Virus record (IMG/VR): IMGVR_UViG_3300035438_000194
Coordinates: 49,847 to 113,846 of that record
DNA from: a virus
Reading direction: 5' to 3' (one strand)
DNA: 64,000 nucleotides
Shown one piece after another: positions 24,801 through 62,067 of this stretch; positions within the stretch are counted from its first letter, which is position 1, and each line of letters starts with the position of its first letter. Under the pieces are notes generated by a model, which worked only from the letters and a program-made list of their open reading frames with translations, was not told the origin of the DNA and made no database searches. Both the position numbers and the translations under genes were made by a program.

Positions 24801-27800
24801 ATGCGCTGCCTGATGAGAAAGCTAGACTAAAAGCATCTAAAGCATATACCCTTAAGAGAAACTATCAAAAGGCATTTAAAGAACTATTTGATACAGCTAA
24901 AGACAAGTTGAAGATGGAACTTGGTTACAAGGATCCTAAATCAACTTCAAAAACAGAAGGTCTTAACTTAGAGAAACTTATGGCTTTTGTAGAGGAGCAA
25001 CTCCTTAACAGAGAGACCTTGTCTGAGTATGAGTTAGACTTTTTGCAAATGAGCCCTAGCGGTCAGTTGATTTATCCGCAAGACTTTGGTTCAGATCCAT
25101 CACAGATTGAAAAACTTATATCATCATTGGTCAATAAGAGAATTACTGACCAGATGTCTAGAGGTGAGTCTTTCATCCAAGTGTCTAGTGTTGGTTTTAG
25201 AAAAGCTGATTTGGCAGCAGATTCTAGTTTATTATTCTACCGTATAGGACCTGATGGTAAAACGTTACCAATGCAGGTTAAGATACCATTGATGGGTGAC
25301 TTTAAAAACCTATTGAACCATGTGGACAATGATGGTAAAAAGATTGGTACCCTGGCTCGTTTAAATGAGTTGATCAAGGATGAGAAGTGGATGAATGAGA
25401 ACCGTGAAATGCTTACTATGGGCGGTGACCGTATTCCAATTCAGGGTCACAACTCTATGGAGGTTATGGAAGTAGCTGAGTTCTTTGATCCTGCTGGTGG
25501 TAACATGATGGTATTACCATTAGAGATTGTTGCTAAGACCGGTGGTGACTTTGACATTGATAAGCTTATCTGCTTGATCCCTGTTATCAAAAACAACATG
25601 GGTGTAGTAGAACTATCTAAACCCACTAAGACCCGTAAGGTACTTAAGACTATTGTTAAGGAGAAGAGTGACTTGTATAATGAACTTAAGGCTTTAAGAA
25701 AACAATATATTAAAGAAGAACTTACACCAGAGTTTAGAGAAGAAATTAGTAAACTTGAAGATGAGCAAAGAGCAGCTCAGCAAGAGTTTAATGAAAATTA
25801 TATTAATGATTACTATGTAGGCGGATCATTAGATAAGTATATGAACCGTATCAACAGTGCTCAACAAACTATTGATGCTATATATGATCAACTCTTTGAA
25901 GACAGGAAAGAAGTATTCCAAGGTGAATTTGATCAGTATATTGATGAGGCTCAACCTATACTTAATAAGTTACGTGAGTTAAACAGACAAGAAGATACAT
26001 TCAGTCCCGATGCCTATCAGAATAATCTGATGCAAGCAATGAATGATATATTACTAAGAGGTGAAAACTTTACTAACCTTACACTTCCTAATGATACAGA
26101 GACCTATACAGCTAAGGGTGGTATTGTTGATGAATTTACAAGTGTAAACAGACCTTATCAAAGAAGTAATAATAAGACTAATAACAGAAGAAAGAAAATG
26201 TCTCCTACCCGTATCATGGAGAATCGTTACAACAATGTTAAAGCATTTGCAATGAGTGCGGGTAAGAGCGGTGTAAGTTTGGGTGCTAAGACTAACAAGA
26301 TCTTTATAAAATATAAAGAGGTTGGTTTGTACTTTGAACCTACTTATACAGCTATTAAAGGAAACAAGCAGTACCCTATTAAGCAAAGATTACTAGTAGA
26401 TCATAAGACTGTTTTAGTTAATGGTAAACGAGCAATCTCTATGGGGCATGGTAAGGATGTGAATGGTAAAGATATTTCAGATCAGATCTCTCAGTTGATG
26501 AATGGTTACTTAGACGTAGCTAAAGAAGACTGGGTATTTGATATCAATGCTGTAAAAGAATTAGAACCTGAGTTCTTATTATTGTTACAGGCGGGTGTTG
26601 GTCCTAGAATGGCAACAGCTTTAATATCACAACCTTTAGTTAAGAAGTATGTAGAAGCTATCCGTAAGAGAAGTAATGCATTCTCATTAGCTGTTAGTGA
26701 TAAAGAAACTTCTTTAAGCTTTGCTAAGTATGAAGCCTTGTTAGAAATATTGGACAAAAACATGCCTGATATATTCAACTATGCTGATGCACCTGTAAAT
26801 CAGGAAACTGGAAATATTATAACTCCATCAAATGAAAAGTTATTGTTTGATGCGCAAAGGTTTTTAGGTAATCGCGGAAACTTTAATATTGATGATCTTA
26901 TAGCTAATGCTAAGAAGGGTCCTGATTCTGGAGTCACTGGATATGATATAGAGGCATTTGCTCACTTCATGGAGATCATGGATCTTACTAAAGGAGACAA
27001 AGAACTTAAGCAAAGCATAGATATTGACACTAAGAAGCAATTGACTGCGTTAGATGCGACTAAGAAAATTAATGCGCTTAAAGACCTATCTGGTAGATTC
27101 CCTAAGAGTAAGATTAAAAGTCTTCTGGATGACACATATTTATCTAACTTTAAGACTCAGGGTCTTCTGCTTGAAGCTATTTCAAAAGTGTTACCATTAC
27201 GAGGTTTAAAATCTTTAAATGACTTTGCATACGATCTTAGTAAGAATAAAAAGTTTGATGATCAGAAAGCAAGAGAGAACTATGAAAAGAACTTGATTGC
27301 TGACTTTCCTTCTTACATTGCAGCTAATGCTAGACCACGTGTAACTAGTAATGATGCAAGTTATAGAGGTGTTGAAATTGAACAAACTATACCAATCAAT
27401 AAGCAAACATTACTTAAGTTTGGAGCTATCTATATGGATGGTGCTCTTCAAGTAGACCAGACTCAGATTGACATTGACTTTGATAACAGAGCTTATACTA
27501 AAGATGGTTATGGAGACGGTCTTCTTGCTAAACTACCACCTACCGTATTCTCAGAATATGATAAAGGTAAAAAGACTGCTAGAAACTTATACAGAGCATT
27601 TGTATTTGAAAGAGAGATAGCACGTGCAGCATTCCCTTATACTGAGATAGAAGGCACTGATGATCAGTTTGAGTTATTTAGAGCAGAGTTTCAAATGTAT
27701 CAAGTAATGCGTATGAACACCCCTGGTGGTGCAAAGCTTGACCTAGTGGATCAGTATGAAGAGTTTATCAGAAACAAAGCATTATATAATGCAGGAATTG

Positions 27801-30800
27801 ATGCTGGTAGATTTATGTCTATGCCTAGCATGGGTATCTTTAGTATGTATGATACTTTCTCAGCTATACTTAACCAGGCAAATATTCAAGGTGTAAATCT
27901 AAAAGAACAGTTCCCTGTATTAGAAAGCCTTAGACAAACTGAAGTAGAAGGTAAGAAGTTTAACTTTATTACTTTAGCTAGAAAGGTTAAAGATGTAGAT
28001 GATCGTACATCATTTACAGCACAGTTGCTTAGCTTGATGAATCCTAATGTCCGTAAGGTTGGTAATGAAGGTTTCAATCTTGCTATCAGTTCTTTCTTTG
28101 CTAAGTTCCCAGAGATGGCATTTGCCCAAGCTGGTAACAACAGTGCAAGTGGGTTATACATTGGTTCAATCGTAGACGCTAAGTCTATAGCAGTTGCCCA
28201 AGCGGACAACTTAAATGAGTACATTGAAGCCCTTAAGGATCCTGAAACAGCTAAAAACATCTTAAATGACTACGCTAGAAAGTTTGAGCAAAAAGCTCCT
28301 TACAAAAACAAAGCAGCTTATTTTAACTATAACAGTAACAAGGATATCACTGATTATATTCCTGAGGCGCTACCAGAAGATGCATTATCAATTGCAGAAT
28401 CAGAAGTAAAGAAAGAGCCACACTGGAGAAAGGATGAGGCTATGGCCAATGCTTCAACAAAGGCAATTGCTAAAGCTACACAGCCAAAAGATGTTACTTA
28501 TAGAAGTTCAACCAAAGCTTATCTAGAAGCCCTTGGCGGAGCATCTACAGACTTTACAAGTTCTGATGCTGTATGGATATTTGGAGCAGGTGCTTGGAGT
28601 GCTACAGCAAAGAATATCAAAGAAGACTTTGATAATTACTATGTACCTATGATCAATAGAGCCTTAGAATCAGGTGTCACTACCTTCAATATAGGTACAG
28701 CATCTGGTATTGATACTATGGCAACAGACTACTTAAAGAGTAAAGGCTTTACTGTAGAGTCACAGGGTGAGTGGAATAAACTTACTGGTGGACCGGTAAC
28801 AGCTGTTGAAACAGCTAGAACCATCTATGATAAAATTAATAAAGATCAAACAACGCAGTCAGAAAATGTAGTATTACCTAAAGATTTAGAAGACAATAAA
28901 ATATATTCAGGTAAGGAATTCTGGAATAAAATTGTACCAGAAGCGAGGGATATGTTTGATGATAAGGTAAATCCAAAAACAGGTCAGACAAGACCAATGA
29001 TTGTTGCGTATAGAGGTAGTCATAAAAAAACGTTTTTGCAGAACTACAAAGATGGCCTTACTGTAGGTAATCCTTTTGATTGGCAAGTTGAAACAGGCAC
29101 TGGGGATGAGAAAGGTATAAAGTCTACTAAACGATTTATACATTGGATGATTACCGGAGATAACATGGGGACAGCTGCAGCTACTCCAGAGTACAGACAA
29201 GCTATCATAGATGATATTAAGTCAGGTAAGATAAAAGGCAGTCCTATTCTTTACTATGCAGAGAAGAACTATGCTACTCACGCAACAGCTTTAGACTATC
29301 TGATCAATAAGCATGACTGGGATGCTCAAGCTCCCGGTGCTCGTAAAACTTATACTGGGAAAATAACTAGTTTGCAACCTAATCAAATATTTGTATTTGG
29401 TTCCAATGAAGGAAGTTCTAAAGGAGGTAAACCTACACATGGATCAGGTTCTGCTAAAGATGCTAAAGACAAATTTGGAGCTATTCAAGGTCAAAGCAGA
29501 GGAGCTCAAGGACAGTCTTATGCAATTGTAACTAAGAAGTTCTACGATGTAAAAAAGTCTAGCACTCCTCAAGAAATCATAGAAGAGATCAAAGGTTTAT
29601 ATGCATATGCTGAACAAAACTCTGATAAAGATTTCTTAGTATCTGACTACTCTGAGAGTAACCTTAATGGTTATACCGGGCAAGAGATGGCAGATATGTT
29701 TAATGCTGCTGGATCTATACCTTCTAACATTGTGTTTAATCAAAACTTTGATAAGCTATTACCTAGTACTCAAGCTCCTAGAGCTACTGTAAAAGGACCC
29801 GGTCCAGAGACTAAGATGAATATTTATGCCGGTACAGGAGAGAATGCTGAATTAAGTAACTTTGCTAATAGACCTTTTTTCCCTACAACTAATGGATTGG
29901 CACAAGCTAGATTTAATAATGTAGAAAGTGCATATCAAGCAGCTAAGATTCTATTCTATACAGATAAAAGTGATAAGGCTACACTTGAATATAATGCATC
30001 TCTATATAACCAACTTAAAAATACCAATGGTTCTCAAGCTAAATCTATAGGTAAAAATATTAGATCTTTAAACATTCAAGATTGGGATGCTAATTCTTCT
30101 AGAATAATGAAGGAACTGTTAAAACAGTCCTTTGAACAAAATCCAGATGCTCTTGCTAAACTTCTTGCTACAGGTAATGCTACTCTTACACATACACAAG
30201 ATAGAGGTAAGTGGGCTACAGAGTTTCCAAGATTGCTTATGGAGGTAAGAGAAGAGCTAAGTCCTTCTCAACCACAAGCAGCAGCTGGACCAACTGTACA
30301 AGCTGCCCAAGCTGCACCAGGTCTTATCATTGACATAAGAGGTCCTAAGGAACTAGTTGATTATGAGACTGGTGATTTGATACCTGTAGCTAAAGTATAC
30401 AAGCAGACTCAGTTCATTACAAAAAATGGAGACGGAGTGGAGATTGCTTATACTCTTCCTGAACAACTTGCTAAACAAATAATGGATGAGAATCCAAACA
30501 ATGTATTTGTATTTGATTGGTTCCGTCCTCACAGTACTGGTAAAGAAAACACTGCTGCAAGAAACAATACTAGACAAGCTTGGAGATCAGGTTTAGCAAC
30601 TGGACAAAGTTTTGGTATCACTACTAGAACCTTTGAAGGAAAAACACCAAGTGATGTACAGTTTGAAGGTGTTAAAAAAGTTATTGATGAGCAGATTGAA
30701 CAACTTGTACAACTCCGTGACTCAGGTAAGATCATTACCTTCCCTTCAGATGGTATAGGTCAGAACTTTAAAGGCTCAGGTGCTGATCGAATCTTTGTAT

Positions 30801-31009
30801 ATTTGTCTAAGAAGCTTCTTGAGAATTTTGGTTACAGAAATCCAGCGTTTGATAACATAAGCTTAGTACTTGGACCTTTAGAAGTAACAGGTACAGACTA
30901 TACGCAAGACTTCTATAAGAAGATGGCGGATGCTGAGTCTGGAGAAAAGGCTCAGACAGTTACAGACAATGAAGTTAGAGAACATATTAAAACGTGTAAA
31001 ATAAAGTAA
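18818..31009 (+). CDS. Giant virion RNA polymerase fused to a zincin and a C-terminal ADP-ribose/nucleotide domain array
   Basis: A 4063-aa protein. An intact zincin motif H723-E-A-W-H727 is followed by AEEYLADKF (782-790) as third-ligand region. The RNA polymerase core is marked by TGGD2244-F-D-I-D2248, the metal-binding loop known from the crAss-like phage phi14:2 gp66 and related to YonO. A coiled coil (~2270-2330) follows. The tail contains, in order: a SLOG-like domain (~3238-3325, IFGAGAW and TASGIDTMA with S3296-G-I-D3299); a DUF4326-like domain (~3378-3505, VGNPF and a late THATALDYL); a macro/A1S_2505-like domain (~3515-3630, IFVFGSN and GQSYAIVTK); a NADAR domain (~3667-3812, ELSNFA, E3703 in VESAYQA, LLMEVREEL); and a second diverged copy of the macro-like domain (~3885-4030, VFVFDWF and GQSFGITT). 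phi14:2 gp66 is about half this length, so the tail is an addition. Polymerase call firm; domain array good, exact functions inferred. Confidence 0.9.
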   Translation: MICKPDGTYEIEQSDIDKVNKWVYKLLSTRATSGTRTFDLNAFVKYVYTRSLEKTNDAQKALTIARQVPIAIDLVISADPDLRKGLAALQGYSRDAVDAMGDSFLESMTAVSDLVNTDPTKKDLANTLAATANVELLQPVTPTIQAGALETGRELVSDLPYTPLSTTGNEDIPGREWYYGFIKNISNQDLGLSNTGTASYFGVKDGIRIAMVLGSQIPVDQLYLDVQNQTDIEDIKKNQLFTVVTDNAGNFVYFNENYEVTDAENGKLVYFPTRTIPSMKVVDGRKVFNLGEQSDRTVQSIKDKVRKIMADAPLLKEKDAREQVEVEFQGAYSLLSDIADHLQNNPSDKVLLNLTGINKGTLRYDQDTVTPLSSIKNLGALNLRIRTTGVSSEGTKQEFETRRYLAIDGVSDKIGFSMNSFSTAMASKVADLLVNDVYTEDGTRLSTDDKYKMIRTFVPLGTTGLTIVTANNEIKIGGNTVDLSDKAAAKAAIVEFLTRTIKVNDSKGNEIEIKNQLRFDGKTYEASNGVIDDFTITPASDGTYTVASNLVDYKTWLKDNAYIKIQLDSNGNVTQVNGYFEFNASPETRKTIASRQVEQMAVPKKGGDLSLNGLTAPTVEDKENALAKIRERAKGRNNKPLFSMRHDSLAANKAQIRRGKKWFDTTEIKFKDADGKVVTKKLSEIVPYEVMFNVINSNGDIRATWTRNGITLFNGSDYTDLYHEAWHGFTQLFLTADQKTALYNEVKSLKEDIKYYDHKAGEWKTMNSKDLDFSDRNHIIYAEEYLADKFRKYSMDRSAPSAKVKSIFRKIWDAIKALFSRSTKESAANPYNNTLINQAFDQLYTGNLVDYTFDQANIQFGQLNYGITAIDKDLNGIEGLSVEDSLAISEGINHYIAEYIDMAVAGLVYGDANPAYSSLILTDAEYKKEALFYAKDMLQVQLDKLLAEYGTKVSYEKQIAERQIKTLTFAIDQFGDLDDLRNNKKGTLAFFNKKTGYLDLTTYKTDDNTDDATEEDDDDSGRPTKSKDRTGMYAGNGTELSGLERMDSILKFAFSNITEIGPDGIKRNQMGLPVMASSKTIFNMVSSLTENLNDREEMYRAIWNKSEEKERNGEPTPMAQMLKQFLSKVGEPKDATSGIAQLFWNKVFHGLRTDRLTSIQVNINKTKYGHEVIVGETDSSDKAILRGWQDAFVFNNKSDYLIVDPKTNEKYLDLKALNAKYGNIGPGQPIESIDQINPYQFFKDFGILITPTNKNLKAIRDQDIIRTLLRFRLAPLMRIPDLKVTSYNSLFMENHPYIDAKGEKSVLQEQGGVMNKLLALESKANPKYSDYMRLFGADARSERSNPSGPGNTLIALNKAGNFNNIISRPELSQYNPKKNPAVKTSVIFNKMFPSLGARDQRYSLDYQAMLGTQYIDKRAGIDTLVTSLASAESDEQVAYLRDFFSFSLHGAAEAFKHADKNMAYIVQLLGPQMFYIPIADFAKGTGEGNTGKQAANKIITGYIAAELERIKKVLASKELTSGEKASDIILYTDSEATVKDEDGLIREVKYKTLADVGVEFTVFDDILSDDLKARLINDKSIQTVEDFLKLLSGDKALEQSIHRELNTYFAKLVKEDRDQLESFEFFKGANKAKSLSTIKNRSFKNSSLSTDEIFDASVLHYVYASFIHKMEMSTLFYGDAVMFQHDKDEHMKRIPTFFATGKIPVFDDTMENWLLSSAGGYYKSEFFKNSGLTQPTSNQLVTRQLNTAILEDAIESISKEAFDQMVEAYLKNNPGATEAEAKAKYKSYRNMKSADAQGWISFDAYRALEIRLDNWSPAKEVVYQEVLKGEISDPEILETFFPVKKMQYAGPMGTENFAANAVHKYSLMPLIPTIIKDTELEKLHNKMVSQNIAYSVMHSGSKVASIGNGNKLSKFYTEPNGNRTLAFTAPDYQFSSSVIYLDYFKEQLVTHDTAKGKVKFPTQKRALVTSGLDEFGVPTDFEVGSTDDERLTAWNALPDEKARLKASKAYTLKRNYQKAFKELFDTAKDKLKMELGYKDPKSTSKTEGLNLEKLMAFVEEQLLNRETLSEYELDFLQMSPSGQLIYPQDFGSDPSQIEKLISSLVNKRITDQMSRGESFIQVSSVGFRKADLAADSSLLFYRIGPDGKTLPMQVKIPLMGDFKNLLNHVDNDGKKIGTLARLNELIKDEKWMNENREMLTMGGDRIPIQGHNSMEVMEVAEFFDPAGGNMMVLPLEIVAKTGGDFDIDKLICLIPVIKNNMGVVELSKPTKTRKVLKTIVKEKSDLYNELKALRKQYIKEELTPEFREEISKLEDEQRAAQQEFNENYINDYYVGGSLDKYMNRINSAQQTIDAIYDQLFEDRKEVFQGEFDQYIDEAQPILNKLRELNRQEDTFSPDAYQNNLMQAMNDILLRGENFTNLTLPNDTETYTAKGGIVDEFTSVNRPYQRSNNKTNNRRKKMSPTRIMENRYNNVKAFAMSAGKSGVSLGAKTNKIFIKYKEVGLYFEPTYTAIKGNKQYPIKQRLLVDHKTVLVNGKRAISMGHGKDVNGKDISDQISQLMNGYLDVAKEDWVFDINAVKELEPEFLLLLQAGVGPRMATALISQPLVKKYVEAIRKRSNAFSLAVSDKETSLSFAKYEALLEILDKNMPDIFNYADAPVNQETGNIITPSNEKLLFDAQRFLGNRGNFNIDDLIANAKKGPDSGVTGYDIEAFAHFMEIMDLTKGDKELKQSIDIDTKKQLTALDATKKINALKDLSGRFPKSKIKSLLDDTYLSNFKTQGLLLEAISKVLPLRGLKSLNDFAYDLSKNKKFDDQKARENYEKNLIADFPSYIAANARPRVTSNDASYRGVEIEQTIPINKQTLLKFGAIYMDGALQVDQTQIDIDFDNRAYTKDGYGDGLLAKLPPTVFSEYDKGKKTARNLYRAFVFEREIARAAFPYTEIEGTDDQFELFRAEFQMYQVMRMNTPGGAKLDLVDQYEEFIRNKALYNAGIDAGRFMSMPSMGIFSMYDTFSAILNQANIQGVNLKEQFPVLESLRQTEVEGKKFNFITLARKVKDVDDRTSFTAQLLSLMNPNVRKVGNEGFNLAISSFFAKFPEMAFAQAGNNSASGLYIGSIVDAKSIAVAQADNLNEYIEALKDPETAKNILNDYARKFEQKAPYKNKAAYFNYNSNKDITDYIPEALPEDALSIAESEVKKEPHWRKDEAMANASTKAIAKATQPKDVTYRSSTKAYLEALGGASTDFTSSDAVWIFGAGAWSATAKNIKEDFDNYYVPMINRALESGVTTFNIGTASGIDTMATDYLKSKGFTVESQGEWNKLTGGPVTAVETARTIYDKINKDQTTQSENVVLPKDLEDNKIYSGKEFWNKIVPEARDMFDDKVNPKTGQTRPMIVAYRGSHKKTFLQNYKDGLTVGNPFDWQVETGTGDEKGIKSTKRFIHWMITGDNMGTAAATPEYRQAIIDDIKSGKIKGSPILYYAEKNYATHATALDYLINKHDWDAQAPGARKTYTGKITSLQPNQIFVFGSNEGSSKGGKPTHGSGSAKDAKDKFGAIQGQSRGAQGQSYAIVTKKFYDVKKSSTPQEIIEEIKGLYAYAEQNSDKDFLVSDYSESNLNGYTGQEMADMFNAAGSIPSNIVFNQNFDKLLPSTQAPRATVKGPGPETKMNIYAGTGENAELSNFANRPFFPTTNGLAQARFNNVESAYQAAKILFYTDKSDKATLEYNASLYNQLKNTNGSQAKSIGKNIRSLNIQDWDANSSRIMKELLKQSFEQNPDALAKLLATGNATLTHTQDRGKWATEFPRLLMEVREELSPSQPQAAAGPTVQAAQAAPGLIIDIRGPKELVDYETGDLIPVAKVYKQTQFITKNGDGVEIAYTLPEQLAKQIMDENPNNVFVFDWFRPHSTGKENTAARNNTRQAWRSGLATGQSFGITTRTFEGKTPSDVQFEGVKKVIDEQIEQLVQLRDSGKIITFPSDGIGQNFKGSGADRIFVYLSKKLLENFGYRNPAFDNISLVLGPLEVTGTDYTQDFYKKMADAESGEKAQTVTDNEVREHIKTCKIK

Positions 31010-31010
31010 A

Positions 31011-34000
31011 ATGGCAAATAGTTGTGCATTTGGTAAGGATTGGGATGAGCTCGTAGAAGCGGTAGGTTTATTCCAAGCAAGTAAGGATTATATTGAGAAC
31101 AATGGAGAGGTTCGTACCCCTGATGAAGTAATAGCTAAGCTAGAAGCTAGAGGGGAATGGGCTGAAGAATCTACTCAGGACTTTACCAGACCAATGCTAA
31201 GAGGAACTGAGATGGACATGTTAGCTGAAATGGCTAACACTATCCCTGGTTTCTCTACTATATTTAATCCAATACACCTATCAAAGGCTGCTACAGACAT
31301 GCGTAAAGGAAACTCTACGCTAGACTTTACTATAGGCAACCTAAGTTCACGTCTTGGTATACCATACCAGATGGTTGATGAGGTAGAAGCACAAACTATA
31401 TTGGATAACTCAGGTACTCCTTATACAGGAGAAGCTGGTTTCTATGTAGGTGGTGTTGTATACTTTATCAAAGACAAGGTAAATACAGAGGTGGCATTCC
31501 ACGAGTTTGCTCACCCATTTGTAAGAGCTATTGCAAAAGAGAACAACGTGTTGTTTGAAAAGCTGCATGCAGACTTACTTCTAACACCTGAAGGCAGACT
31601 CTTAGAGAAACTAATGAGCAACCTTCACCCAGAATTAGAAGCGGGTGCAGAACTATACAAAGAGGAAATGTTGGTACGAGCTTTAACAAAAGCATCTGTT
31701 GACAAGAAGAATAATAAGAAACCATCTTCTGGCTTTGTTAAGTTCCTTAAAGACCTATTGTATGCAATCAAACAGGTTTTTAGAAAGTATGTAGGTAAAT
31801 CAGTTGCAATCTCTGAGCTTACACAAGACACAACTCTAGATGAGTTAGCTGATATTTATACAGAAGCTAATATAAACTTTGATATAGAGTTAGTTAACCA
31901 GAAGGATGTTGTTGCATTTATTAGAGAGACCCGTACTCAAGTTGATGATATAGTTAATATACTTAATACAGATGAGGGTGCTCAAGTTATCAAGAAGGGT
32001 CTAGATAACATCAATCAAGTAGTTAATGAGCATACTGACCGTCTTATAAAGAATAAGAACTTAGATGAAATGTTAGCTATTCTAGAGACAGGATTTGACC
32101 AAGCTGACTTACAAATTATACGTTCTAATATAACTCAGTACAGTAATCTTATAAATGCAAAGTTTACTACTCTTGCAGAAGAGAACAATCGTGTTCAACA
32201 GCAATCAGCAGCTTTTGTAAATACTGTTTTCCAGATCAAAGCAATGGCTGATAAGATGATTCTGCATATGCAGGAGTTATCTAAAAGAGAAACTGATCCT
32301 AGTAAGGTAAAGAAGTTCTACTACTATGAGCAATTGACTAATGACTGGAAGAGAACAATGGCTCAGATCCGTATTGACATGAGTAATGCTGGTATCCTAG
32401 AAGGGCCAATGCTTGATGTTATAGGATCTATTGAGACTAAGTTACAAACAGCTGATACAATTGCAGGACGTGTGCATCTTGAGGGCTCATCTGAATTACT
32501 TGAGAGTGTACTAGAACCACTATCTAAAGAAGTAGATAGATACTATAAAGAAATTATTGAAGAGTTAGAAAAGAAAGGTGCTCCTGATAGAATCTTGAAC
32601 CGTTACAAAGCGGAGTATGATAGCGCTAAACTTGACAAAGCTACACTTAAGAGCTGGTTATCAGGTGAGCAGGGAGACACAAACGTAATCAGTGCATGGA
32701 TGGAGTCATTCATGAACATACAAGACCCGGTTATATTTGGTCTTGCATCTTACGTAAACAACAATATGATGGATGTTATGACTACTGTACAACAGAAGTA
32801 TAACAGACAGTCACAAGATATTAAAGAACTTCTTGATTCAGTTGGTTACAATCCTAATAACCCAAAAGGGATATTAGATCTTGTAGGTTATACTGAGAAA
32901 GAAGGTACATATGGTAAGGACGGTAAGTTTGTAGAGAAAGAAAGAAAAGCTTTCATTCACCACGTTAAAGGGTATGACATAGAGATCACTCGTAAGAATG
33001 ATCAGATTAAACAAGCTGAGCTAGAGTTCAAGAAGACTGGAGACAGTACTGACCTAGACAGATTATATATTGAACGTGAAAACTTACTTAAAGATTTTCA
33101 CAGGGAATATTCAGAGGAAGTTTATGCTAAGGATGATCTTCTTAGCAAAGATGAGATAGGTAAAAAGGCCTATCTTGAACGCTTTAAGATTCTTAGTAAG
33201 ATACAGAACTTAAATGCTACACTTGAAAGTGCGGCAGACAGACATGATCCAGACTACCAGATGTCATTAGCTACATACTGGCAAGAGTATAAGCAATTAT
33301 ATTCTTTATCATATGCTGATGGTACTCAAAAGAAAGGTGATGATCTTGATGTTTCTGTAAGACTTAGAGAACATAGAGAAGCAACTAGAAAGTTCTATGA
33401 GTGGGTACCAAGAAAAGGTATGTTCCAAGGGGCTCTGAAGGCTTATGAGCAACAGATCCTTGATACTAATCCTAGTATTAAATACGGTGGCCCTGAGTTT
33501 AACAGACTACGTGAAGAGTGGCTTAACAATAATACAGTTGTTGCAATTAAACCAGAGTTCTTTAGAGACCGTCAAGTTATCTTAGATAGAATTAATGAAC
33601 TGAAGGCTAAGTTACCACAGTCTGTACAAGACCAGCTAAAGTTAGATGAGATCCTTAAGGAGATGAATGACCAAATCTCTGCTTACAGAGATGACAGCGG
33701 TCAGCCTGAAGGTACTGCAATGAGTGATACAAAACTTGCTCGATTGAAGGAACTACAAGAGCAGTTTGAATTGTATAAAGATGACCTTCTAACAGTACAA
33801 GGTGTAACTAAAGCTGATATTGCGTTTAAGAAACAGATTGATGCAGCTATAGTTGAGTATACACTTAGAGGTAAAGGAGAACATCCGTTAAGTGATCCTG
33901 ATGTAGCACTACGCTATGCTGATATTATCAATGATATGAATGACTTTGGTTTATCTGAAGAAGATGCAGCAGAGTTAACAGAGCTATATCAGAAGTTGTT

Positions 34001-36560
34001 TAGCATCTCAGATAAAGAAGCTACAGATGACTATATAAATGTTGTCAATGCTTTAATGCAACCAGGTAATGACCCAGATGATTCAATTGACGGTTCTTAT
34101 TTGTATGATACATTTAACTTAACATCATTTGATAAGAATACTATTGATGAAGTATTGACTGAAGAAGTAGCTAATACTTTAATGGGTCAGAGTTCTGCAT
34201 TTAAGAAGTGGTTCTTAGCTAATCATATCAAGACCGTGTTTGTAACAAACAGAGGTGACGAGATTGTAAAGTATAAAAGAACAGCAGCTTGGAGCGTAAC
34301 CAGACCGGTTGATGTAAAGTACTATGAGACTACAGATATCCTAGATGAAGTTGGTAATGTAGTTGAAACTATACAGCGTAAACCAAAGATTGATTACTTC
34401 AGAAGAAGGGTTAAAGAGGAGTATAGAACCAAGCGTGTTACAATGCTTGAAGCTTTGGAACAAGGAGACTTAAGCTTAGCTAATGTTGATCACAATGGTA
34501 ACTGGTTACCTAAAGCAGATAGTAAGTACCGTAATGAAGAGTACTACAATCTTAGAAACAGAGGTGGTAATGAGTTTAAGCTATTGACTACACTGCTTAC
34601 GTATCACTTGGAAAATCAACAAGGTCTTAATAGAAACTCTAGACTGGGTGTATTCATTCCAAGATACCGTAAAGAAAATAGAGAACTTTTAGTAGAAAGA
34701 GGAGGAGCTCAGAGTAAGTTATCAAGCTGGGCTAGCAATGTTAAAGCTAGCTTTAGTAGAGCTAAAGATGACATGGAAGATGGTTACAATCCAGAGATTG
34801 ACACAACCTTCATTAACTTAGACTTGTTTGATAACGAGATTACAGGTATTCCTATTTCTGGTAAGTATGACTTAGAACTAGATGAGACTTCAAATGATGT
34901 TCTTATGGGTATAATGCGTTATATGCAGAGTGCTGAAAGACACAAGAAGTTAATTGAAATCAGTCCTGAAGTGCGTGCAATTCAGAAAGTTGTTAATGGT
35001 TCTGAAGGAGCTATTAAAGATATGACTAAGGCTAGTAAGTCTGACTTTATTGAACGTAACTTAATGCGTTATGCAACTAGAAAAGGAACATCAGTAAGAG
35101 CCCAGACTGTTAATGCTTTTATAGAAAGAGAGTTTGAGGGTAAGACACAAGCTGGTGCATTAGCAGATCTAACAGGTCTTAATAAGACAGTAAACAATTT
35201 ACTAGGTCTTTCTTCTATGGCCTTCTTTGCATTGGATATACCATCAGCATTGAAGAACTCATTAGGAGCAAGATTCCAGTCCATCATACACGCAGCTGGT
35301 GGTAAAGACATCAGTGCTATGAGTTTAGGTAAAGGTACCCTATGGGGTAATATTACTTCAGCAGAGGTAAGCTTCCAGATTTACAGATATGGACCTAAGA
35401 GTCTTAATGTACAGTTGTATGAAGTGTTTGACCCGGACCAAAAGTTTGCGGACAAAGAAGGTAAGTTTGCAGAAGGTATGTCTAGAACATTCTCTAAGGA
35501 CGTTATGTCTGGTAGCTGGTTAACCAATACCAGAGAATGGACTCAGATGAATGCATCCCTAGGTTTATTTGGTGGGCTTATGTATCACCAAATGGTAGAT
35601 CAAACTATTGATGGCGTAACTAAACAGATTCCATACATAGAAGCATGGGAAGTTAAAGACGGTCAACTTACAGTTAAGGAAGGTATTGATAAGGATTGGG
35701 ATCTTGGGGGTAAGAACTTTAAGATGATGCGCGCTAAGGTACAAGGTGTAAACCGTAAACTTAACGGAGCATACTCCAAGTTTGATAAGACACAAGGTGA
35801 AAGATACTTACTAGTAAGATTAATATCATTCTTAAAGCGTCACTTTACAAGAATGTTCTTGAACAGATGGGGCTACAGAGGAAACTTCCTTGAGCCAAAG
35901 GCTAGATGGGATGTAGGTTCAAATGAAATGGAGATAGGTTACTATACACAATCAATAGCCTCTATTGTAAATGGTTTTAAGTCTGGAGGTAGAGACTTCA
36001 AGTATATGACCCAGAGAGAGAAGGTAGCATTCAAGAAGTTTGCTACTGAATTAGTTCTTGTATTAGCTGCAGGTATGCTTGTTAAACTTATCTTTAGCTA
36101 TGATGAGGATGACGAGGATCGTTTTGAGAAGTTGAGACAGAAGTCAGGACCGTTACCAATGCCTTGGGCAACTGAATCACCATACAAGTTTAACTTTAGT
36201 GGGTATATGTCTAACCAAGCGCTGTTCTTATCTAAGGCTACACTTAATGAGAACTCAGCATTCTTACCGTTTCCTAGTATGGGACTAGATGACTATAGAG
36301 CAATCTTAGACTTTAACTCTATTGCGTTTGGTAATACTCTATCTAACTACGTTAAGATAGTAGATAACTTAGCAGGTATGATAACAGGTGATGAAGGTGC
36401 CTACTATAAGAAAGATGTAGGTCCTTATAGCTGGCAGGATGAAGGTTCTGCTAAAGTATGGAACTATCTAGGTAAGAGTATTGGTTTATCCGGTTCTCAA
36501 GTTGACCCAGCATTACGTCTTAAGAATTTAGAATCAATACAAAACAGATTAAAAGGTTAA
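31011..36560 (+). CDS. Giant virion protein with active-type zincin metalloprotease motif
   Basis: An 1849-aa protein starting one base after the polymerase stop. Near the N-terminus it has H164-E-F-A-H168 in a hydrophobic setting (EVAFHEFAHPFV), with KEEML (~220) as the likely third zinc ligand. This arrangement matches zincin-like domains of large polyvalent phage proteins. Most of the rest is helical and highly charged (residues ~290-1100), probably long coiled coils. A hydrophobic stretch, LVLVLAAGMLVKLIF, near residue 1680 is followed by a DEDDED acidic patch and could be a membrane segment. The protease may mature virion proteins or act on the host after ejection; which of these applies cannot be told from sequence. 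Confidence 0.8.
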   Translation: MANSCAFGKDWDELVEAVGLFQASKDYIENNGEVRTPDEVIAKLEARGEWAEESTQDFTRPMLRGTEMDMLAEMANTIPGFSTIFNPIHLSKAATDMRKGNSTLDFTIGNLSSRLGIPYQMVDEVEAQTILDNSGTPYTGEAGFYVGGVVYFIKDKVNTEVAFHEFAHPFVRAIAKENNVLFEKLHADLLLTPEGRLLEKLMSNLHPELEAGAELYKEEMLVRALTKASVDKKNNKKPSSGFVKFLKDLLYAIKQVFRKYVGKSVAISELTQDTTLDELADIYTEANINFDIELVNQKDVVAFIRETRTQVDDIVNILNTDEGAQVIKKGLDNINQVVNEHTDRLIKNKNLDEMLAILETGFDQADLQIIRSNITQYSNLINAKFTTLAEENNRVQQQSAAFVNTVFQIKAMADKMILHMQELSKRETDPSKVKKFYYYEQLTNDWKRTMAQIRIDMSNAGILEGPMLDVIGSIETKLQTADTIAGRVHLEGSSELLESVLEPLSKEVDRYYKEIIEELEKKGAPDRILNRYKAEYDSAKLDKATLKSWLSGEQGDTNVISAWMESFMNIQDPVIFGLASYVNNNMMDVMTTVQQKYNRQSQDIKELLDSVGYNPNNPKGILDLVGYTEKEGTYGKDGKFVEKERKAFIHHVKGYDIEITRKNDQIKQAELEFKKTGDSTDLDRLYIERENLLKDFHREYSEEVYAKDDLLSKDEIGKKAYLERFKILSKIQNLNATLESAADRHDPDYQMSLATYWQEYKQLYSLSYADGTQKKGDDLDVSVRLREHREATRKFYEWVPRKGMFQGALKAYEQQILDTNPSIKYGGPEFNRLREEWLNNNTVVAIKPEFFRDRQVILDRINELKAKLPQSVQDQLKLDEILKEMNDQISAYRDDSGQPEGTAMSDTKLARLKELQEQFELYKDDLLTVQGVTKADIAFKKQIDAAIVEYTLRGKGEHPLSDPDVALRYADIINDMNDFGLSEEDAAELTELYQKLFSISDKEATDDYINVVNALMQPGNDPDDSIDGSYLYDTFNLTSFDKNTIDEVLTEEVANTLMGQSSAFKKWFLANHIKTVFVTNRGDEIVKYKRTAAWSVTRPVDVKYYETTDILDEVGNVVETIQRKPKIDYFRRRVKEEYRTKRVTMLEALEQGDLSLANVDHNGNWLPKADSKYRNEEYYNLRNRGGNEFKLLTTLLTYHLENQQGLNRNSRLGVFIPRYRKENRELLVERGGAQSKLSSWASNVKASFSRAKDDMEDGYNPEIDTTFINLDLFDNEITGIPISGKYDLELDETSNDVLMGIMRYMQSAERHKKLIEISPEVRAIQKVVNGSEGAIKDMTKASKSDFIERNLMRYATRKGTSVRAQTVNAFIEREFEGKTQAGALADLTGLNKTVNNLLGLSSMAFFALDIPSALKNSLGARFQSIIHAAGGKDISAMSLGKGTLWGNITSAEVSFQIYRYGPKSLNVQLYEVFDPDQKFADKEGKFAEGMSRTFSKDVMSGSWLTNTREWTQMNASLGLFGGLMYHQMVDQTIDGVTKQIPYIEAWEVKDGQLTVKEGIDKDWDLGGKNFKMMRAKVQGVNRKLNGAYSKFDKTQGERYLLVRLISFLKRHFTRMFLNRWGYRGNFLEPKARWDVGSNEMEIGYYTQSIASIVNGFKSGGRDFKYMTQREKVAFKKFATELVLVLAAGMLVKLIFSYDEDDEDRFEKLRQKSGPLPMPWATESPYKFNFSGYMSNQALFLSKATLNENSAFLPFPSMGLDDYRAILDFNSIAFGNTLSNYVKIVDNLAGMITGDEGAYYKKDVGPYSWQDEGSAKVWNYLGKSIGLSGSQVDPALRLKNLESIQNRLKG

Positions 36561-48212: not shown

Positions 48213-48944
48213 TTAGTTTAATTTAATTAAATAACCTTTGCAGGTTTTGTTTTTCTTAGCAGCCTGGTGTATAGATTGTACACTAACTTTTAATAAGAAT
48301 GCTGCTTCATTTATACTTTTTACAGTTAATGTTTCTGTATCAGAAACTAAAATGATTTTTTTATACTTTACATTACTAGGTTTCTTAGGAGCTTTAGCTT
48401 TAAGTTTCTTAACTTTTTTAAAGCTCCACATATAACCGCCCAATGTTTTAGTATTTCCAATAGATGTTTTATGCATTGTCTTACCGTTTAAACCAACAGC
48501 TAATGCTGCAGCTTTTAATGTTGGGTAAGATGCTACATATACACCCTCTTTTGTATACTGATGAATAGTTCTAGATGCATGGTTATCCTCACCAAGCCTT
48601 TTACCGGTATTAGCAATAGAAAGTTTTAACTTAGTTGCTTCACTTTTTATTCGTGATATAGGGTCTTGCTCAACATTTATGTTAGGTTTTAAGCAAGCTA
48701 TATAATGGGCTTCCCTTTCAACATAGTTATCACAAAACTCTAATACACAACAGTTTAAACTTTCTTCTCCATACTTAGAATAGACTCTTTGTAGATGCTG
48801 ATTGTAATGCTTACACCGCTTTAAAGAGTTCTTATGTTCCTTAAGACGTATGTAAATATTCTTACTGCTTCCTACATAGTAATGACCATTACCATACATC
48901 ATATAAACACCTGCTTTATTCTTTAAATCATAACTTATCTTCAT
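48213..48944 (-). CDS. GIY-YIG homing endonuclease with NUMOD/HTH-type repeats
   Basis: A 243-aa protein. The GIY-YIG nuclease domain is at the N-terminus: GVY (12-14), YYVGSS (22-27), a basic RLKEH helix and an EREAHYI helix carrying the catalytic Glu. Repeated DNA-binding units follow: YTKEGVYVASYPTLKAAA with GGYMW, then SINEAAFLLKVSVQSI with CKGYLIKL. These are typical NUMOD-like helices of free-standing homing enzymes. It sits between a MoxR-like ATPase and its VWA partner with a 62-base non-coding flank upstream, which looks like an insertion. It probably cleaves the same locus in related phages. Confidence 0.9.
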   Translation of the reverse strand: MKISYDLKNKAGVYMMYGNGHYYVGSSKNIYIRLKEHKNSLKRCKHYNQHLQRVYSKYGEESLNCCVLEFCDNYVEREAHYIACLKPNINVEQDPISRIKSEATKLKLSIANTGKRLGEDNHASRTIHQYTKEGVYVASYPTLKAAALAVGLNGKTMHKTSIGNTKTLGGYMWSFKKVKKLKAKAPKKPSNVKYKKIILVSDTETLTVKSINEAAFLLKVSVQSIHQAAKKNKTCKGYLIKLN

Positions 48945-49006: not shown

Positions 49007-50206
49007 TCAATTAAGCTTTATCTGGGGTCCGGGCAAGTCTTTGTTTATACTCCCACGGGTAGATATTACCCATAGCATTTTGCCTCTTGGCTTTACAGAA
49101 CAATCACATTCACCATCAGTTAAGTATATCAAACAAGTATACTTATCTTGGCTATCATTATACAGTTCCAATACTGGATCAAAGTAAGTACCACCGCGTC
49201 CATGTATCTCAATCTTATCTCCTGCCTTGTATGGCCCGATATGACGGATATGTGTATCACATTGTACTACAGTAATCTCTGCACCAGTCTTATTAATATG
49301 ACCAATCTCATGGAAGAACTCTTGTACTTCCTTATCACTAACGGAACCGCTAGTATCTACAGCAACTAAGATATGCTTACGGTGTTTAATCTTAAGACCG
49401 GGGTTATCCTCAAATCTTTTATTAAACTTACGTCTAAGCTTCTTAGTAAATACTTTCTGACTACCTCCAGTAAAGCGTCTAAGATATGCTTTCCAGTCAA
49501 ACTTAGGTGGCTCTTTACTATTGAGTTTATCTAGTAGTCCTTTAAGTTCTCCAGGTACATGACCACGAGACTTCTCTACTTGTTCTGCAATCTCCTTAAG
49601 TTGATGCTCTACTTGTTTCTGTACAAGTTTCTTTTCTGCTTCACTCAGGTCATTAAATTCATCCCAGGTACTATGATCAGGAACAGGATTACCGTCACCA
49701 TAAGTTGGTTGACCTTGACCCATTGCCTTCATCATCTTCTCAAAATCACTAGTACCATTTCCTTGATCTAGCTGCTGTTGTAGTAGGTCATAATAAACTC
49801 TACAACCTGCTTTAGGAGGAAGATTCATTGGAGCAAACATCTCGTTATCAATAGTACATCCACCGTCTGGTAGATACATCTTATCAATATACTGGTTGAT
49901 CTCCAAGTCCATAGCCACATTGGCTAACTTCTTATCTGCAAAATCATCATGCATAGTAAGATGGAAGAATGCAATATGCAAGAGCTCATGTTTCAAGAGA
50001 CCAATGTGGTGCTCAGGACTCAAGCTCTCCCAGAATTCTTCATTGATTGCTAACTGGAAGTTGATGTTATGCTTAGACACACCAGCAGTTGGCACTCTCT
50101 TACTCCATAATTTATTTAAGCCAATGAGAAAGAGCCCATAAAAGGGCTCCTTTAACATCAGTTCTTTACTAGCCTTAGCTAGACTTTCTTGTTTTGTATG
50201 CTTCAT
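49007..50206 (-). CDS. VWA-like protein with N-terminal metallopeptidase-like domain
   Basis: A 399-aa protein. The N-terminal domain has H73-E-L-L-H77 followed by a NVAMDLEINQYI helix, a metallopeptidase-like layout (DUF2201 N-terminal type). A charged linker (~150-245) follows. The C-terminal VWA-like domain has the MIDAS motif DTSGS (~283-287), then GRGGTYF (~335) and LTDGECD (~362). Such proteins partner MoxR-type ATPases, and that ATPase is encoded just downstream at 47015, beyond the inserted endonuclease. The pair may load or remodel a protein complex during replication or late infection; no target is evident. Confidence 0.85.
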   Translation of the reverse strand: MKHTKQESLAKASKELMLKEPFYGLFLIGLNKLWSKRVPTAGVSKHNINFQLAINEEFWESLSPEHHIGLLKHELLHIAFFHLTMHDDFADKKLANVAMDLEINQYIDKMYLPDGGCTIDNEMFAPMNLPPKAGCRVYYDLLQQQLDQGNGTSDFEKMMKAMGQGQPTYGDGNPVPDHSTWDEFNDLSEAEKKLVQKQVEHQLKEIAEQVEKSRGHVPGELKGLLDKLNSKEPPKFDWKAYLRRFTGGSQKVFTKKLRRKFNKRFEDNPGLKIKHRKHILVAVDTSGSVSDKEVQEFFHEIGHINKTGAEITVVQCDTHIRHIGPYKAGDKIEIHGRGGTYFDPVLELYNDSQDKYTCLIYLTDGECDCSVKPRGKMLWVISTRGSINKDLPGPQIKLN

Positions 50207-51439: not shown

Positions 51440-51859
51440 TTACTTTTGTTTATAGAACCTTCCCAGTATGTTTGCGTTTAACCAGAAGTCTTTCTCTAGT
51501 ACTTCACACATGAACTGGTACTTTACCTCTTGATAAGAAAGCTCAGTCTTAGAGTAGCATATCTTTAGGATAGTCCTTTTGATTTGTACCCCAGCCTTAT
51601 GAGCTGCCTTAAGTTTTTCATTACTACTATAGTAGTTCTGATATACAATTTTTCTTACGCGCTTGTAAGTCTTCTTACGTTTATCTGTAGACAATGCCTT
51701 CTTAGAAAGCTTTGTCTTAACATCCGCAAAGAAGTTCTTCTTGCCTATGTAGGACTTGCGTTCACCATCTAGGATAACATCCATCTGATATACAAATCCT
51801 ACAGCACCATCAGGAATCATATCCTCGGTGAATTCTTTTAATTGGTAGATCCAACTCAT
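51440..51859 (-). CDS. Putative phage nuclease of the YIGKK (GIY-YIG-like) family
   Basis: A 139-aa basic protein. VGFVYQMDVI followed by SYIGKKNF (~20-43) resembles the paired strands of GIY-YIG nucleases, and VYQNYYSSNEKL, then SYQEVKYQFMCEVL (with a Glu in the expected helix) and ANILGRFYK follow, as in a family of phage nuclease-like proteins. The catalytic assignment is uncertain because the G-I-Y element is altered to F-V-Y. It overlaps the primase stop by four bases. Confidence 0.6.
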   Translation of the reverse strand: MSWIYQLKEFTEDMIPDGAVGFVYQMDVILDGERKSYIGKKNFFADVKTKLSKKALSTDKRKKTYKRVRKIVYQNYYSSNEKLKAAHKAGVQIKRTILKICYSKTELSYQEVKYQFMCEVLEKDFWLNANILGRFYKQK

Positions 51860-60196: not shown

Positions 60197-60482
60197 TCTC
60201 TTGTTCTAGTTCAGGACGGTTGACCTTAAGGCCCCACATCAGGTTATACATAGAAGCAGATGTATTAGCATACCTAACAGTAAGCTTTCTATGCTTACGG
60301 AGGTACCCTACCATCCACTCCATCCACTTTTCTTCTTGCTCAGGAGTCATGGTCCATTCTTCATACCATTTATCCTTACGGTCTTTGATGTCCTCATAGG
60401 TTACATCATGACCAGCTATTATAAACATGGTGTTGATTATATCTTTTACCATGTCATCATCCGATAGTCTTTTACTTTTCAT
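60189..60482 (-). CDS. Hypothetical Trp-rich protein, 97 aa
   Basis: A 97-aa protein with a striking Trp/Glu segment (KWYEEWTMTPEQEEKWMEWM) followed by a basic YLRKHRKL helix and MWGLKV. This EWTMTPEQ pattern occurs in small proteins of Bacteroidota phages, as far as I recall. No activity is known. Overlaps the ClpS-like gene by four bases. Confidence 0.65.
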   Translation of the reverse strand: MKSKRLSDDDMVKDIINTMFIIAGHDVTYEDIKDRKDKWYEEWTMTPEQEEKWMEWMVGYLRKHRKLTVRYANTSASMYNLMWGLKVNRPELEQENE

Positions 60483-60802
60483 GGGTCTTCTATTTCACAG
60501 GTTAAATCTAATTCACCAAACACCTTGGCAATTGGTTCAAGCTTATCACGAGAAGCGTACTTTGCTACAGCCTTACCATCATTGTGTACCTTCATAGCAA
60601 TCTCTGCAGCCTTAGCACCAGATATCTCACAGTATATCATAAGAGCCATAATGACTTTATCAAAGCTGTTGTGATCATCATTATACAAGACGAGCTTGCT
60701 GTCCTCCATAAAGGACAGATCAAGCGTTACGTCTTCATCAGTTACAGTCTTAGTCTCTCCAGTTGCACCAGTCATCTGCTTGTTCTTCTTTAAAACAATC
60801 AC
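60479..60802 (-). CDS. clpS: ClpS-like adaptor (N-degron recognition protein)
   Basis: A 107-aa protein whose residues ~36-105 match the ClpS adaptor fold: LVLYN41-D42-D43-H, SFDKVIMALMIYCEISG, then KVH73NDGKA, and a terminal strand CEIE. In E. coli ClpS the pocket residues that hold the N-terminal amino group are N34, D35 and H66; here N41, D42 and H73 have the same 32-residue spacing. ClpS hands N-degron substrates to ClpA/ClpP, so the phage could redirect host proteolysis. The start is uncertain (60802, or 60775 at MTGATGE). Overlaps neighbours on both sides. Confidence 0.85.
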   Translation of the reverse strand: MIVLKKNKQMTGATGETKTVTDEDVTLDLSFMEDSKLVLYNDDHNSFDKVIMALMIYCEISGAKAAEIAMKVHNDGKAVAKYASRDKLEPIAKVFGELDLTCEIEDP

Positions 60803-60986
60803 GGCATAAGTCTGCTTCTTCTAGCATTGCCTCAAAGTGTTCTTGTACATCTGCATCATCAGGCGTAGCTTCTTGAGCCATACTTCTAATGGTATCTCTA
60901 TCACAGTATCTACATAAATCATTTACTTGATTCCAGGGTGCAGTAACATCATGCTCTGCTCCAGCTGGCAAATTGGAGTTGTCCAT
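60750..60986 (-). CDS. Small Cys-rich phage protein, 78 aa
   Basis: About 78 aa from the second in-frame ATG (MDNSNLP, 60986). Starts with NLPAGAEHDVTAPWN, a phrase found at the N-terminus of many small phage proteins, then DLCRYCDRD (CxxC) and ADLCRDCFKEE (CxxC), spaced ~36 residues apart, which could bind a zinc ion. The rest is acidic. Overlaps the ClpS-like gene and the SF2 helicase gene. Function unknown. Confidence 0.65.
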   Translation of the reverse strand: MDNSNLPAGAEHDVTAPWNQVNDLCRYCDRDTIRSMAQEATPDDADVQEHFEAMLEEADLCRDCFKEEQADDWCNWRD

Positions 60987-62067
60987 TTTCAATCCAGGTT
61001 ATTTTAGAATTATCATATTGTTCAAGAGCTTGGATAACCCAAGTCTCATCCACAGTACCCTCATAACATAGGATATGTATAACAGCTTTCTCATCAGGAT
61101 TAAGACGGAGTAATCTACCCAATCTTTGTGCTGACTTACGCTCATTACCATATGCATGCATAATGATACCCTGTTTTAGGTTAGGGATATTCACACCTTC
61201 ATTTAGTTGTAACACACACGAAAGTTTATTTATATCCCCAGATTTAAACTTATCAAGGTTAACTTCTGACTCCTTGTTAGCACTATGATAACTGTAGTCA
61301 CAAAGTTTATCAGCCTGATCTTGAGTATTAGCAAACAGGATTACCTTATCATTGATTGTATCAAACAATCTCTTAGCATACCTTTCTTTACTAGGGAAAC
61401 TCATCAGTGCTTTCATCCTCATAACACGAGTAATCTGTACATCTTTACCAGAGTTTGCATTAAGTAAACGCTCAGTCCAGTAGTTGTAACTTGCTAACTC
61501 TGAAGTAGGAAACTCACCTCTCTTAGTCTTCTGCATAAAATTCTTACGGTCATCTAACTTCATCTTGTGTACAACAATCTGGTAGTCATTTAGAATACCA
61601 TCTTGCACAGCGTCATCAGTTACATACTCATAAGTCATAGGACAATACTTGTTCACCATCATACCCTTCTCTGAAGAAGCTATCTTAGGTGGTGTACCAG
61701 TCAACCCAACAATTCTACCCTTATAGTTTGACAACCATGCATCATGCGTAAAGAGTAAGTTGTGACACTCATCTAGGTATATGATATCATAGTCAGCAGT
61801 TTGCTTAGTAAGCGACAGGTATGTTGAGAAGGTTATGTGAGCAAGGAGGTGGTCAAGATTGAACTTTTTTGCTTCATCAAGCCACGACTTAAGAATAGAA
61901 CGTTTAGGTGCTACAACTAATACCTTTAGAGTATCATCATAGTTCTGAAAGATATGCTGTAGACCAATTAATGTTTTACCAACACCCATAGATACAGCAA
62001 TACCACAACGGTCACATCCTTCAATAGCTTTCAGGGCATCATTCTGTATTTCTTCTCTACTTACCAT
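60949..62067 (-). CDS. SF2 helicase (DEAD/DECH-type, phage UvsW/SNF2-like)
   Basis: A 372-aa protein with motif I SMGVGKT (26-32), Ia VVAPKRSI, motif II YLDECHN (~96-102), motif III GLTGTPP (~120-126) and motif VI QRLGRLLRL (~316-324). It is the small SF2 type used by phages for branch migration, replication restart or origin melting. A member of this group is regular in crAss-like replication blocks. The C-terminal ~12 residues overlap the next gene. Confidence 0.9.
   Translation of the reverse strand: MVSREEIQNDALKAIEGCDRCGIAVSMGVGKTLIGLQHIFQNYDDTLKVLVVAPKRSILKSWLDEAKKFNLDHLLAHITFSTYLSLTKQTADYDIIYLDECHNLLFTHDAWLSNYKGRIVGLTGTPPKIASSEKGMMVNKYCPMTYEYVTDDAVQDGILNDYQIVVHKMKLDDRKNFMQKTKRGEFPTSELASYNYWTERLLNANSGKDVQITRVMRMKALMSFPSKERYAKRLFDTINDKVILFANTQDQADKLCDYSYHSANKESEVNLDKFKSGDINKLSCVLQLNEGVNIPNLKQGIIMHAYGNERKSAQRLGRLLRLNPDEKAVIHILCYEGTVDETWVIQALEQYDNSKITWIENGQLQFASWSRA

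What the first reader, a model, noticed from the sequence alone, without database searches (positions are those of the whole stretch)
60479..60802. Phage-encoded ClpS with intact N-degron pocket
N41, D42 and H73 match E. coli ClpS N34, D35 and H66 in identity and spacing (32 residues). A phage ClpS could recruit host ClpAP to destroy defence or regulatory proteins with new N-termini, for example products of the zincin proteases in the virion. It could instead hinder normal ClpS substrates.
Basis: partly seen in the sequence, partly recalled or inferred. Interest (0 to 1): 0.72.

Follow-up and report, generated by a model that had tools for sequence, protein, structure and literature searches.

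The report
Helicase-linked phage ClpS protease adaptor
A virus of bacteria carries its own copy of ClpS, a small adaptor that tells the bacterial cell's protein shredder what to destroy, and this gene sits next to a DNA helicase gene in many related viruses, so it is probably a standard tool of these viruses and not a stray host gene.

Summary
Window 60479-60802 (minus strand) encodes a real ClpS: Pfam PF02617 at 55.7 bits against a cut-off of 23, and a confident model that matches ClpS crystal structures (Z 14.8, rmsd 1.0 over 75 residues). The Asn-Asp-His set is intact. The start is probably the ATG at 60775, giving 98 residues (N32, D33, H64), not the GTG at 60802.

That phage ClpS recruits host ClpAP is already in print for jumbo phages (PMC7824862, passage read). 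What looks new is the setting. ClpS lies within 512 nt downstream of an SF2 helicase gene in 68 of the 80 best helicase relatives; starting from ClpS, the helicase lies directly upstream in 79 of 79 testable loci.

The window's clade keeps the His in 19 of 19 distinct proteins, an N-terminal extension of about 25 residues, and strong purifying selection. Most sister ClpS lose most of that extension, and 17 of 42 distinct ones carry Asp for His, as human UBR1 does.

Best reading: an N-degron adaptor for the host's Clp unfoldase. Substrates and host are unknown.

The parts
60479..60775 (-). ClpS-like adaptor gene, most likely extent (ATG start, 98 residues)
   Evidence: Pfam PF02617 4.3e-15; start supported by relatives; AlphaFold core confident; ClpS structures Z 12.4-14.8
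   Evidence: start codon not conserved and in-frame stop in L015
60701..60775 (-). N-terminal extension, residues 1-25, mostly low-confidence (disordered) in the model
   Evidence: pLDDT under 50 for residues 1-13; lengths across relatives
60677..60682 (-). Asn32-Asp33, equivalents of E. coli N34-D35
   Evidence: sequence; invariant in all distinct ClpS proteins aligned
60584..60586 (-). His64, equivalent of E. coli H66
   Evidence: sequence; His in 19 of 19 distinct window-clade proteins
60750..60992 (-). small protein with two Cys-x-x-Cys pairs, between helicase and ClpS, overlapping both
   Evidence: ORF list; no Pfam or PHROG match
60949..62067 (-). SF2 helicase (ResIII/Helicase_C), the conserved neighbour of ClpS
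   Evidence: PF04851 2.9e-10, PF00271 5.9e-9; linkage

Best explanation
The gene encodes a working N-degron adaptor. The folded core should bind proteins whose first residue is bulky and hydrophobic, using Asn32, Asp33 and His64 to hold the free amino end, and dock on the N-domain of a host ClpA/ClpC-type unfoldase. Its flexible N-terminal extension should enter the unfoldase channel, so that the bound protein is handed over and degraded. Because the phage makes it from its replication gene block, next to a helicase, out of the host's control, it probably shifts the host Clp protease during infection towards processed proteins of the phage's choice and away from its usual substrates. Shown here: family, fold, intact pocket residues, retained extension, purifying selection, lineage-wide linkage to the helicase, absence of a phage Clp_N unfoldase or ClpP. 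Inferred: peptide binding, docking, delivery, timing and substrates.
For: Family and fold. Pocket: the N34, D35 and H66 equivalents are N, D, H in 19 of 19 distinct window-clade proteins (from 23 loci) and in 49 of 49 distinct Bacteroidota-type proteins; these residues hold the N-degron end in E. coli ClpS (PMC8346999, passage read). Extension: 31 residues before Asn32 in the window protein, in the range of Bacteroidota ClpS; in E. coli the extension enters the ClpA channel, and blocking that entry inhibits delivery (PMC9663308, passages read). Selection: median dN/dS 0.13 over the core, 226 pairs. Partner available: 8 of 8 bacterial genomes searched have Clp_N proteins while 0 of 6 related virus records do; no Clp_N or ClpP in this record.
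Against: No binding, docking or degradation was tested. Almost every Bacteroidota genome already has a ClpS (284 of 296), so a second one may work as a competitor. Sister phage ClpS in the same slot have lost most of the extension (12 residues before the Asn in 33 of 42 distinct proteins), which speaks against delivery as the shared function of the slot. The window clade has lost the Bacteroidota QAEQC signature (KAAEI here) and sits on a long branch. The host is not known; the major capsid protein is closest to that of a cyanobacterial phage.
Confidence: 0.55

Rival explanations
1. Competitor or blocker. The phage ClpS occupies the unfoldase N-domain (and its channel) and keeps the host protease from its other substrates, for example phage proteins, ssrA-tagged proteins or clients of the host ClpS. 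Degradation of N-degron proteins is not the point.
For: E. coli ClpS inhibits degradation of ssrA-tagged substrates by ClpAP (PMC9663308, passage read). Bacteroidota already encode ClpS (284 of 296). Sister proteins in the same slot keep the fold but lack most of the extension.
Against: The window clade keeps pocket residues and extension under selection, which a pure blocker would not need.
Confidence: 0.25
2. Helicase partner. ClpS and the adjacent SF2 helicase act together in phage genome replication or recombination, for example by turning over the helicase or a replication protein at a set time, or by binding it without degradation.
For: Linkage in both directions: 68 of 80 helicase loci and 79 of 79 testable short-type ClpS loci, 22 of 22 window-clade loci. 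Different ClpS lineages occupy the same slot. Helicase and ClpS distances correlate, r = 0.81, 0 of 2000 permutations as high.
Against: Neighbouring genes in phage operons are often co-inherited without acting together. 11 of 80 helicase loci have no ClpS nearby (10 of these 11 have none in the record held), and named Crassvirales with a related helicase have none beside it.
Confidence: 0.15
3. A recently captured host gene with little or no role for the phage.
For: ClpS is common in Bacteroidota.
Against: Long phage-only branch, dN/dS 0.13, hundreds of related viral copies with fixed position.
Confidence: 0.03

Closest known systems
ClpS of Bacteroidota (PF02617)
   Same: Closest cellular type in the trees made here; NDD-x-N-[ST]-F motif, His, Phe at the gatekeeper position, similar extension length
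   Different: About 24-37% identical to the window protein; window clade lacks the QAEQC helix signature; lies beside a phage helicase
E. coli ClpS (PDB 1mbu, 3o2b, 2wa8) and Mycolicibacterium ClpS (9ayo)
   Same: Fold (Z 13.1-14.8), N34/D35/H66 equivalents
   Different: 21-24% identical over the aligned part; Met40 is Phe; the Pro-Pro junction described for E. coli is absent; shorter C-terminal part
Jumbo-phage ClpS: Agrobacterium phage Atu_ph07 gp708, Salicola phage SCTP-2 gp192, Sinorhizobium phage Phosso, and the examples in Iyer et al. 2021
   Same: Phage-encoded ClpS; the same role was proposed in PMC7824862
   Different: Genomes of several hundred kb, some with their own Clp proteins; no related helicase within 1.5 kb in the 5 jumbo/huge loci examined; SCTP-2 and Phosso belong to another ClpS branch
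Human UBR1 N-domain
   Same: ClpS homologue; has Asp (D263) where ClpS has H66 (PMC8346999, passage read), as do 17 of 42 distinct helicase-linked phage ClpS outside the window clade
   Different: The window protein itself has His; UBR1 is a large ubiquitin ligase

Membership tests
ClpS (PF02617) | Profile match over the curated cut-off | tested here: met
   55.7 bits vs 23
ClpS (PF02617) | ClpS fold | tested here: met
   AlphaFold model, core order E-H-H-E-H-E; ClpS chains fill ranks 1-25, Z 12.4-14.8, next family at Z 10.0
ClpS (PF02617) | Asn, Asp and His that hold the N-degron amino end | tested here: met
   N32, D33, H64; 19 of 19 distinct window-clade proteins
ClpS (PF02617) | N-terminal extension able to enter the unfoldase channel | tested here: inconclusive
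   Length is in the Bacteroidota range, but no junction prolines and no experiment
ClpS (PF02617) | Binds N-degron peptides | not testable with these tools
   needs a binding assay
ClpS (PF02617) | Docks on a ClpA/ClpC N-domain | not testable with these tools
   no complex prediction was possible; no Clp_N protein in the phage record
Order Crassvirales (the phage) | Related major capsid protein | tested here: inconclusive
   phrog_11589 major head protein 2.1e-29; best hit Leptolyngbya phage Lbo-JY46 (99% covered), crAss phage cr116_1 only 33% covered, E 7e-6
Order Crassvirales (the phage) | Replication block order helicase - DnaB - Sak4 - primase | tested here: met
   window order as in DAC15 and cr85_1; also seen in Fipvunavirus FpV4, so not specific

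The most novel reading that the evidence does not exclude
A helicase-ClpS pair is a standard module of a large environmental phage group. Different ClpS lineages have come to lie in the same slot, because the slot's job is to reprogram the host Clp protease from inside the replication block. In part of the group the adaptor has been rebuilt: most of the channel-entering extension is gone, a short conserved C-terminal tail (often E-S/G-x-M/L-H/Y) is present, and the pocket His has become Asp several times, matching the pocket of the eukaryotic N-recognin UBR1. If functional, these would be phage N-recognins with a changed delivery mode.
Probability: 0.25. Interest if true: 0.8.

Novelty: new variant of a known kind. 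Interest (0 to 1): 0.55.

Why it matters
Phage-encoded ClpS has been noted in jumbo phages as a patchy accessory, with a role proposed but, in the passages I read, not tested. Here it is a frequent and position-fixed neighbour of a replication-block helicase in a large group of phages of ordinary size, with a natural series of variants: His and Asp pockets, long and short extensions, same slot. That series lets one ask what a virus wants from the N-degron pathway, delivery or blocking, and whether an Asp pocket of the UBR1 kind works in a bacterial-type adaptor. Small, well-folded proteins of 84-98 residues make the tests easy.

Tried and rejected
Phage relative by named record: tblastn in 50,697 phage records gave 12 matches, most of them weak. 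Two of them (Acinetobacter phage MD-2021a) are bacterial DNA: argC, clpA and ynfA lie beside clpS (one of the two looked at). Four Vibrio records match in the terminase region at E 0.9 and were dropped as chance. MT835505 (L098) was kept in the first tree but left out later as distant and of unknown nature.

Phage-encoded Clp machine: Clp_N and ClpP searched in the whole virus record, none. Virion zincin: no Pfam hit, two HExxH motifs only.

Ancestral placement: the trees have 79 columns for 82-89 rows and leave many forks open. They place the window clade among Bacteroidota-type ClpS on a long branch, but cyanobacterial ClpS could not be included, so a cyanobacterial source is not excluded. 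In one search the window clade is one group at low support (26). L090 was dropped (odd 249-aa frame), as were duplicate loci L028-L031; one search used 22 chosen bacterial rows and 10 of the window-clade rows.

dN/dS for the short type (0.43) was computed but is not used: synonymous changes are near saturation. L021 was left out of the dN/dS because its start is unclear.

Papers: 'crAss-like' with 'ClpS' 0 papers; 'phage ClpS', 'phage-encoded ClpS' and 'viral ClpS' 0 occurrences in the 20 of 36 papers listed; ClpS with jumbo phage 3 papers; the listings showed none on this group. Subscription papers are mostly not in that library.

Bias: the first ClpS scan and the genome scan used patterns containing NDD, so Asn-Asp invariance there is partly built in; the Pfam-based set (loci) and the helicase-based set are free of that. 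The His was not part of the pattern in the genome scan or the helicase scan; one of six patterns contained it. The 80 helicase loci are the best 80 of at least 594, so prevalence beyond them is unknown.

Full report
What is there. The minus-strand ORF at 60479-60802 is a ClpS: PF02617, E 4.3e-15, 55.7 bits against a curated cut-off of 23; PHROG 27368 'ATP-dependent protease' at 7.2e-8. The window is positions 49,847-113,846 of a 113,846-base virus record. Relatives show that translation probably begins at the ATG at 60775: the place of the GTG at 60802 holds no start codon in several relatives, and L015 has a stop just before the Met. In the corrected numbering the residues are N32, D33 and H64.

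Fold. AlphaFold with 47 aligned rows gives mean pLDDT 83, blocks from residue 41 on at 93-96, and the first 13 residues under 50. Against solved structures the ClpS chains take ranks 1-25 with Z 12.4-14.8; the best is Mycolicibacterium ClpS with a bound Phe-Ala (rmsd 1.0 over 75 residues). The next family, the L7/L12 C-terminal domain, reaches Z 10.0 (Foldseek).

The pocket. A review (PMC8346999, passage read) names N34, H66 and backbone atoms of D35, T38 and M40 as holding the amino end, and V43 and V65 among the pocket walls. In the window these are N32, H64, D33, N36, F38, V41 and V63. Among 19 distinct window-clade proteins (23 loci) N32, D33, N36, F38, V41 and H64 never vary; V63 is V or I. 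Phe at the gatekeeper position is general in the Bacteroidota-type proteins examined (49 of 49 distinct). Core dN/dS in the window clade has a median of 0.13 over 226 pairs, and the extension 0.25 over 223 pairs (L021 left out).

Relatives. A scan of IMG/VR with the window protein found 27 loci: 22 at 68-87% identity and 5 at 33-46%. Bacteroidota genomes nearly always have ClpS (284 of 296 in the phylum of a Flavilitoribacter genome). Trees put the phage proteins with the Bacteroidota type, the window clade on a long branch of its own (support 90/97; 26 in the quick tree). The few columns leave the exact origin open, and cyanobacteria were not sampled.

The gene pair. The gene upstream of ClpS, with a small Cys-pair protein between, is an SF2 helicase (60949-62067). 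I took the best 80 of at least 594 IMG/VR stretches that encode this helicase and searched them for ClpS by profile. ClpS was found in 69 of 80. In 51 the gap is -17 to 40 nt, in 16 it is 167-281 nt (room for the small Cys-pair gene seen in the window), in one 512 nt, and in one (L128) 4.7 kb. Of the 11 without, a search of the whole records found ClpS elsewhere in 1 (L119's record) and none in 10, several of which are short fragments. In the other direction, a profile of mainly the short type matched at least 528 stretches; of the best 80, 79 had 150 nt or more upstream, and all 79 had the helicase there on the same strand. In the window clade it is 22 of 22; of the five distant loci, L023, L026 and L027 have the helicase close upstream, L024 does not (only 574 nt of upstream sequence in the locus), and L025 has only a weak match far downstream. 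Many of these loci are near-identical, so they are not independent. Helicase and ClpS distances across 52 rows correlate at r = 0.81 (0 of 2000 permutations as high), and 0.71 among the 40 outside the window clade. Yet from the window clade to its nearest sister the helicase falls only from about 70% to 68% identity to the window while ClpS falls from about 80% to 37%. This suggests that a different ClpS came to occupy the same slot, or very fast change.

Variants. Outside the window clade, 57 helicase loci hold 42 distinct ClpS. Asn and Asp are invariant. The His is His in 25 and Asp in 17. The tree needs 4 changes between His and Asp (quick tree, weak forks). Of these 42 proteins, 33 have 12 residues before the Asn, against 31 in the window protein. 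Asp at this place need not kill the pocket: the human UBR1 N-domain has Asp there and the review says that the domain reads bulky hydrophobic N-termini. The Asp-type model (L150) is still ClpS (pLDDT 90.5). Many short proteins end in E-[SG]-x-[ML]-[HY].

The phage. Its major capsid protein matches PHROG 11589 at 2.1e-29; among named phages it is nearest to Leptolyngbya phage Lbo-JY46 (28.5%, 99% covered), then weakly to crAss phage cr116_1. The helicase is nearest to Flavobacterium phage FpV4 and then to Crassvirales, some of which share the order helicase - DnaB - Sak4 - primase. I therefore call it crAss-related with host unproved. The named relatives tested have no ClpS: Lbo-JY46, phi14:2 and FpV4 as whole records (0 of 3), and DAC15, cr85_1 and cr116_1 around the helicase (0 of 3).

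How it most likely works. The phage record holds no Clp_N unfoldase and no ClpP, so it must use the host's. In E. coli, ClpS docks on the ClpA N-domain, its extension enters the channel, N-degron substrates are handed over, and ssrA-tagged substrates are held off (PMC9663308, passages read). The window protein has what such a handover needs, as far as sequence can tell, so I favour an adaptor (0.55) over a blocker (0.25) or a helicase partner (0.15). A mixed role is possible. The short sister proteins, without most of the extension, lean towards the blocker.

Known or new. Phage ClpS with this proposed role is in print for jumbo phages (PMC7824862; PMC6102473, Atu_ph07 gp708; passages only). 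I found no paper on ClpS in crAss-type or helicase-linked form in the searches listed under Tried and rejected. The window gene taken alone is a fairly ordinary, divergent ClpS; the linked module and its variant series are the new part.

Noticed in passing
window 18818-31009, residues 3675-3796: A NADAR domain (PF08719, 7e-13) lies near the C-terminus of a 4063-residue protein in the giant virion-side gene block.
   Followed up: no
window 18818-31009 (residue 723) and 31011-36560 (residue 164): HExxH motifs in two giant proteins (HEAWH, HEFAH); no Pfam zincin match. About 0.3 such motifs would be expected by chance in roughly 10,000 residues (my estimate, no call).
   Followed up: partly
L134, L150, L169 and other short-type ClpS: Conserved C-terminal tail, often E-S/G-x-M/L-H/Y, in proteins that lack most of the N-terminal extension.
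   Followed up: partly
L065-L069: Five genomes of the Bacteroidota set carry a proteobacterial-like ClpS type that scores 100 bits or more with PF02617.
   Followed up: no
CAKLQF020000008.1, L100: A record named Acinetobacter phage MD-2021a holds bacterial chromosome genes (argC, clpA, ynfA) around clpS, so its phage label is misleading there.
   Followed up: yes
LR756504, LR756502, LR745206 (L095-L097): Unannotated huge phage genomes of about 635-642 kb also encode Bacteroidota-type ClpS.
   Followed up: partly
window 48213-48944, 49007-50206, 51440-51859: Homing-type (GIY-YIG/HNH) endonuclease genes in the replication block.
   Followed up: no
BFVD hits: Gut crAss phages (cr1_1, cr50_1, cr126_1) encode proteins with a weak ClpS- or L7/L12-like fold match.
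   Followed up: no
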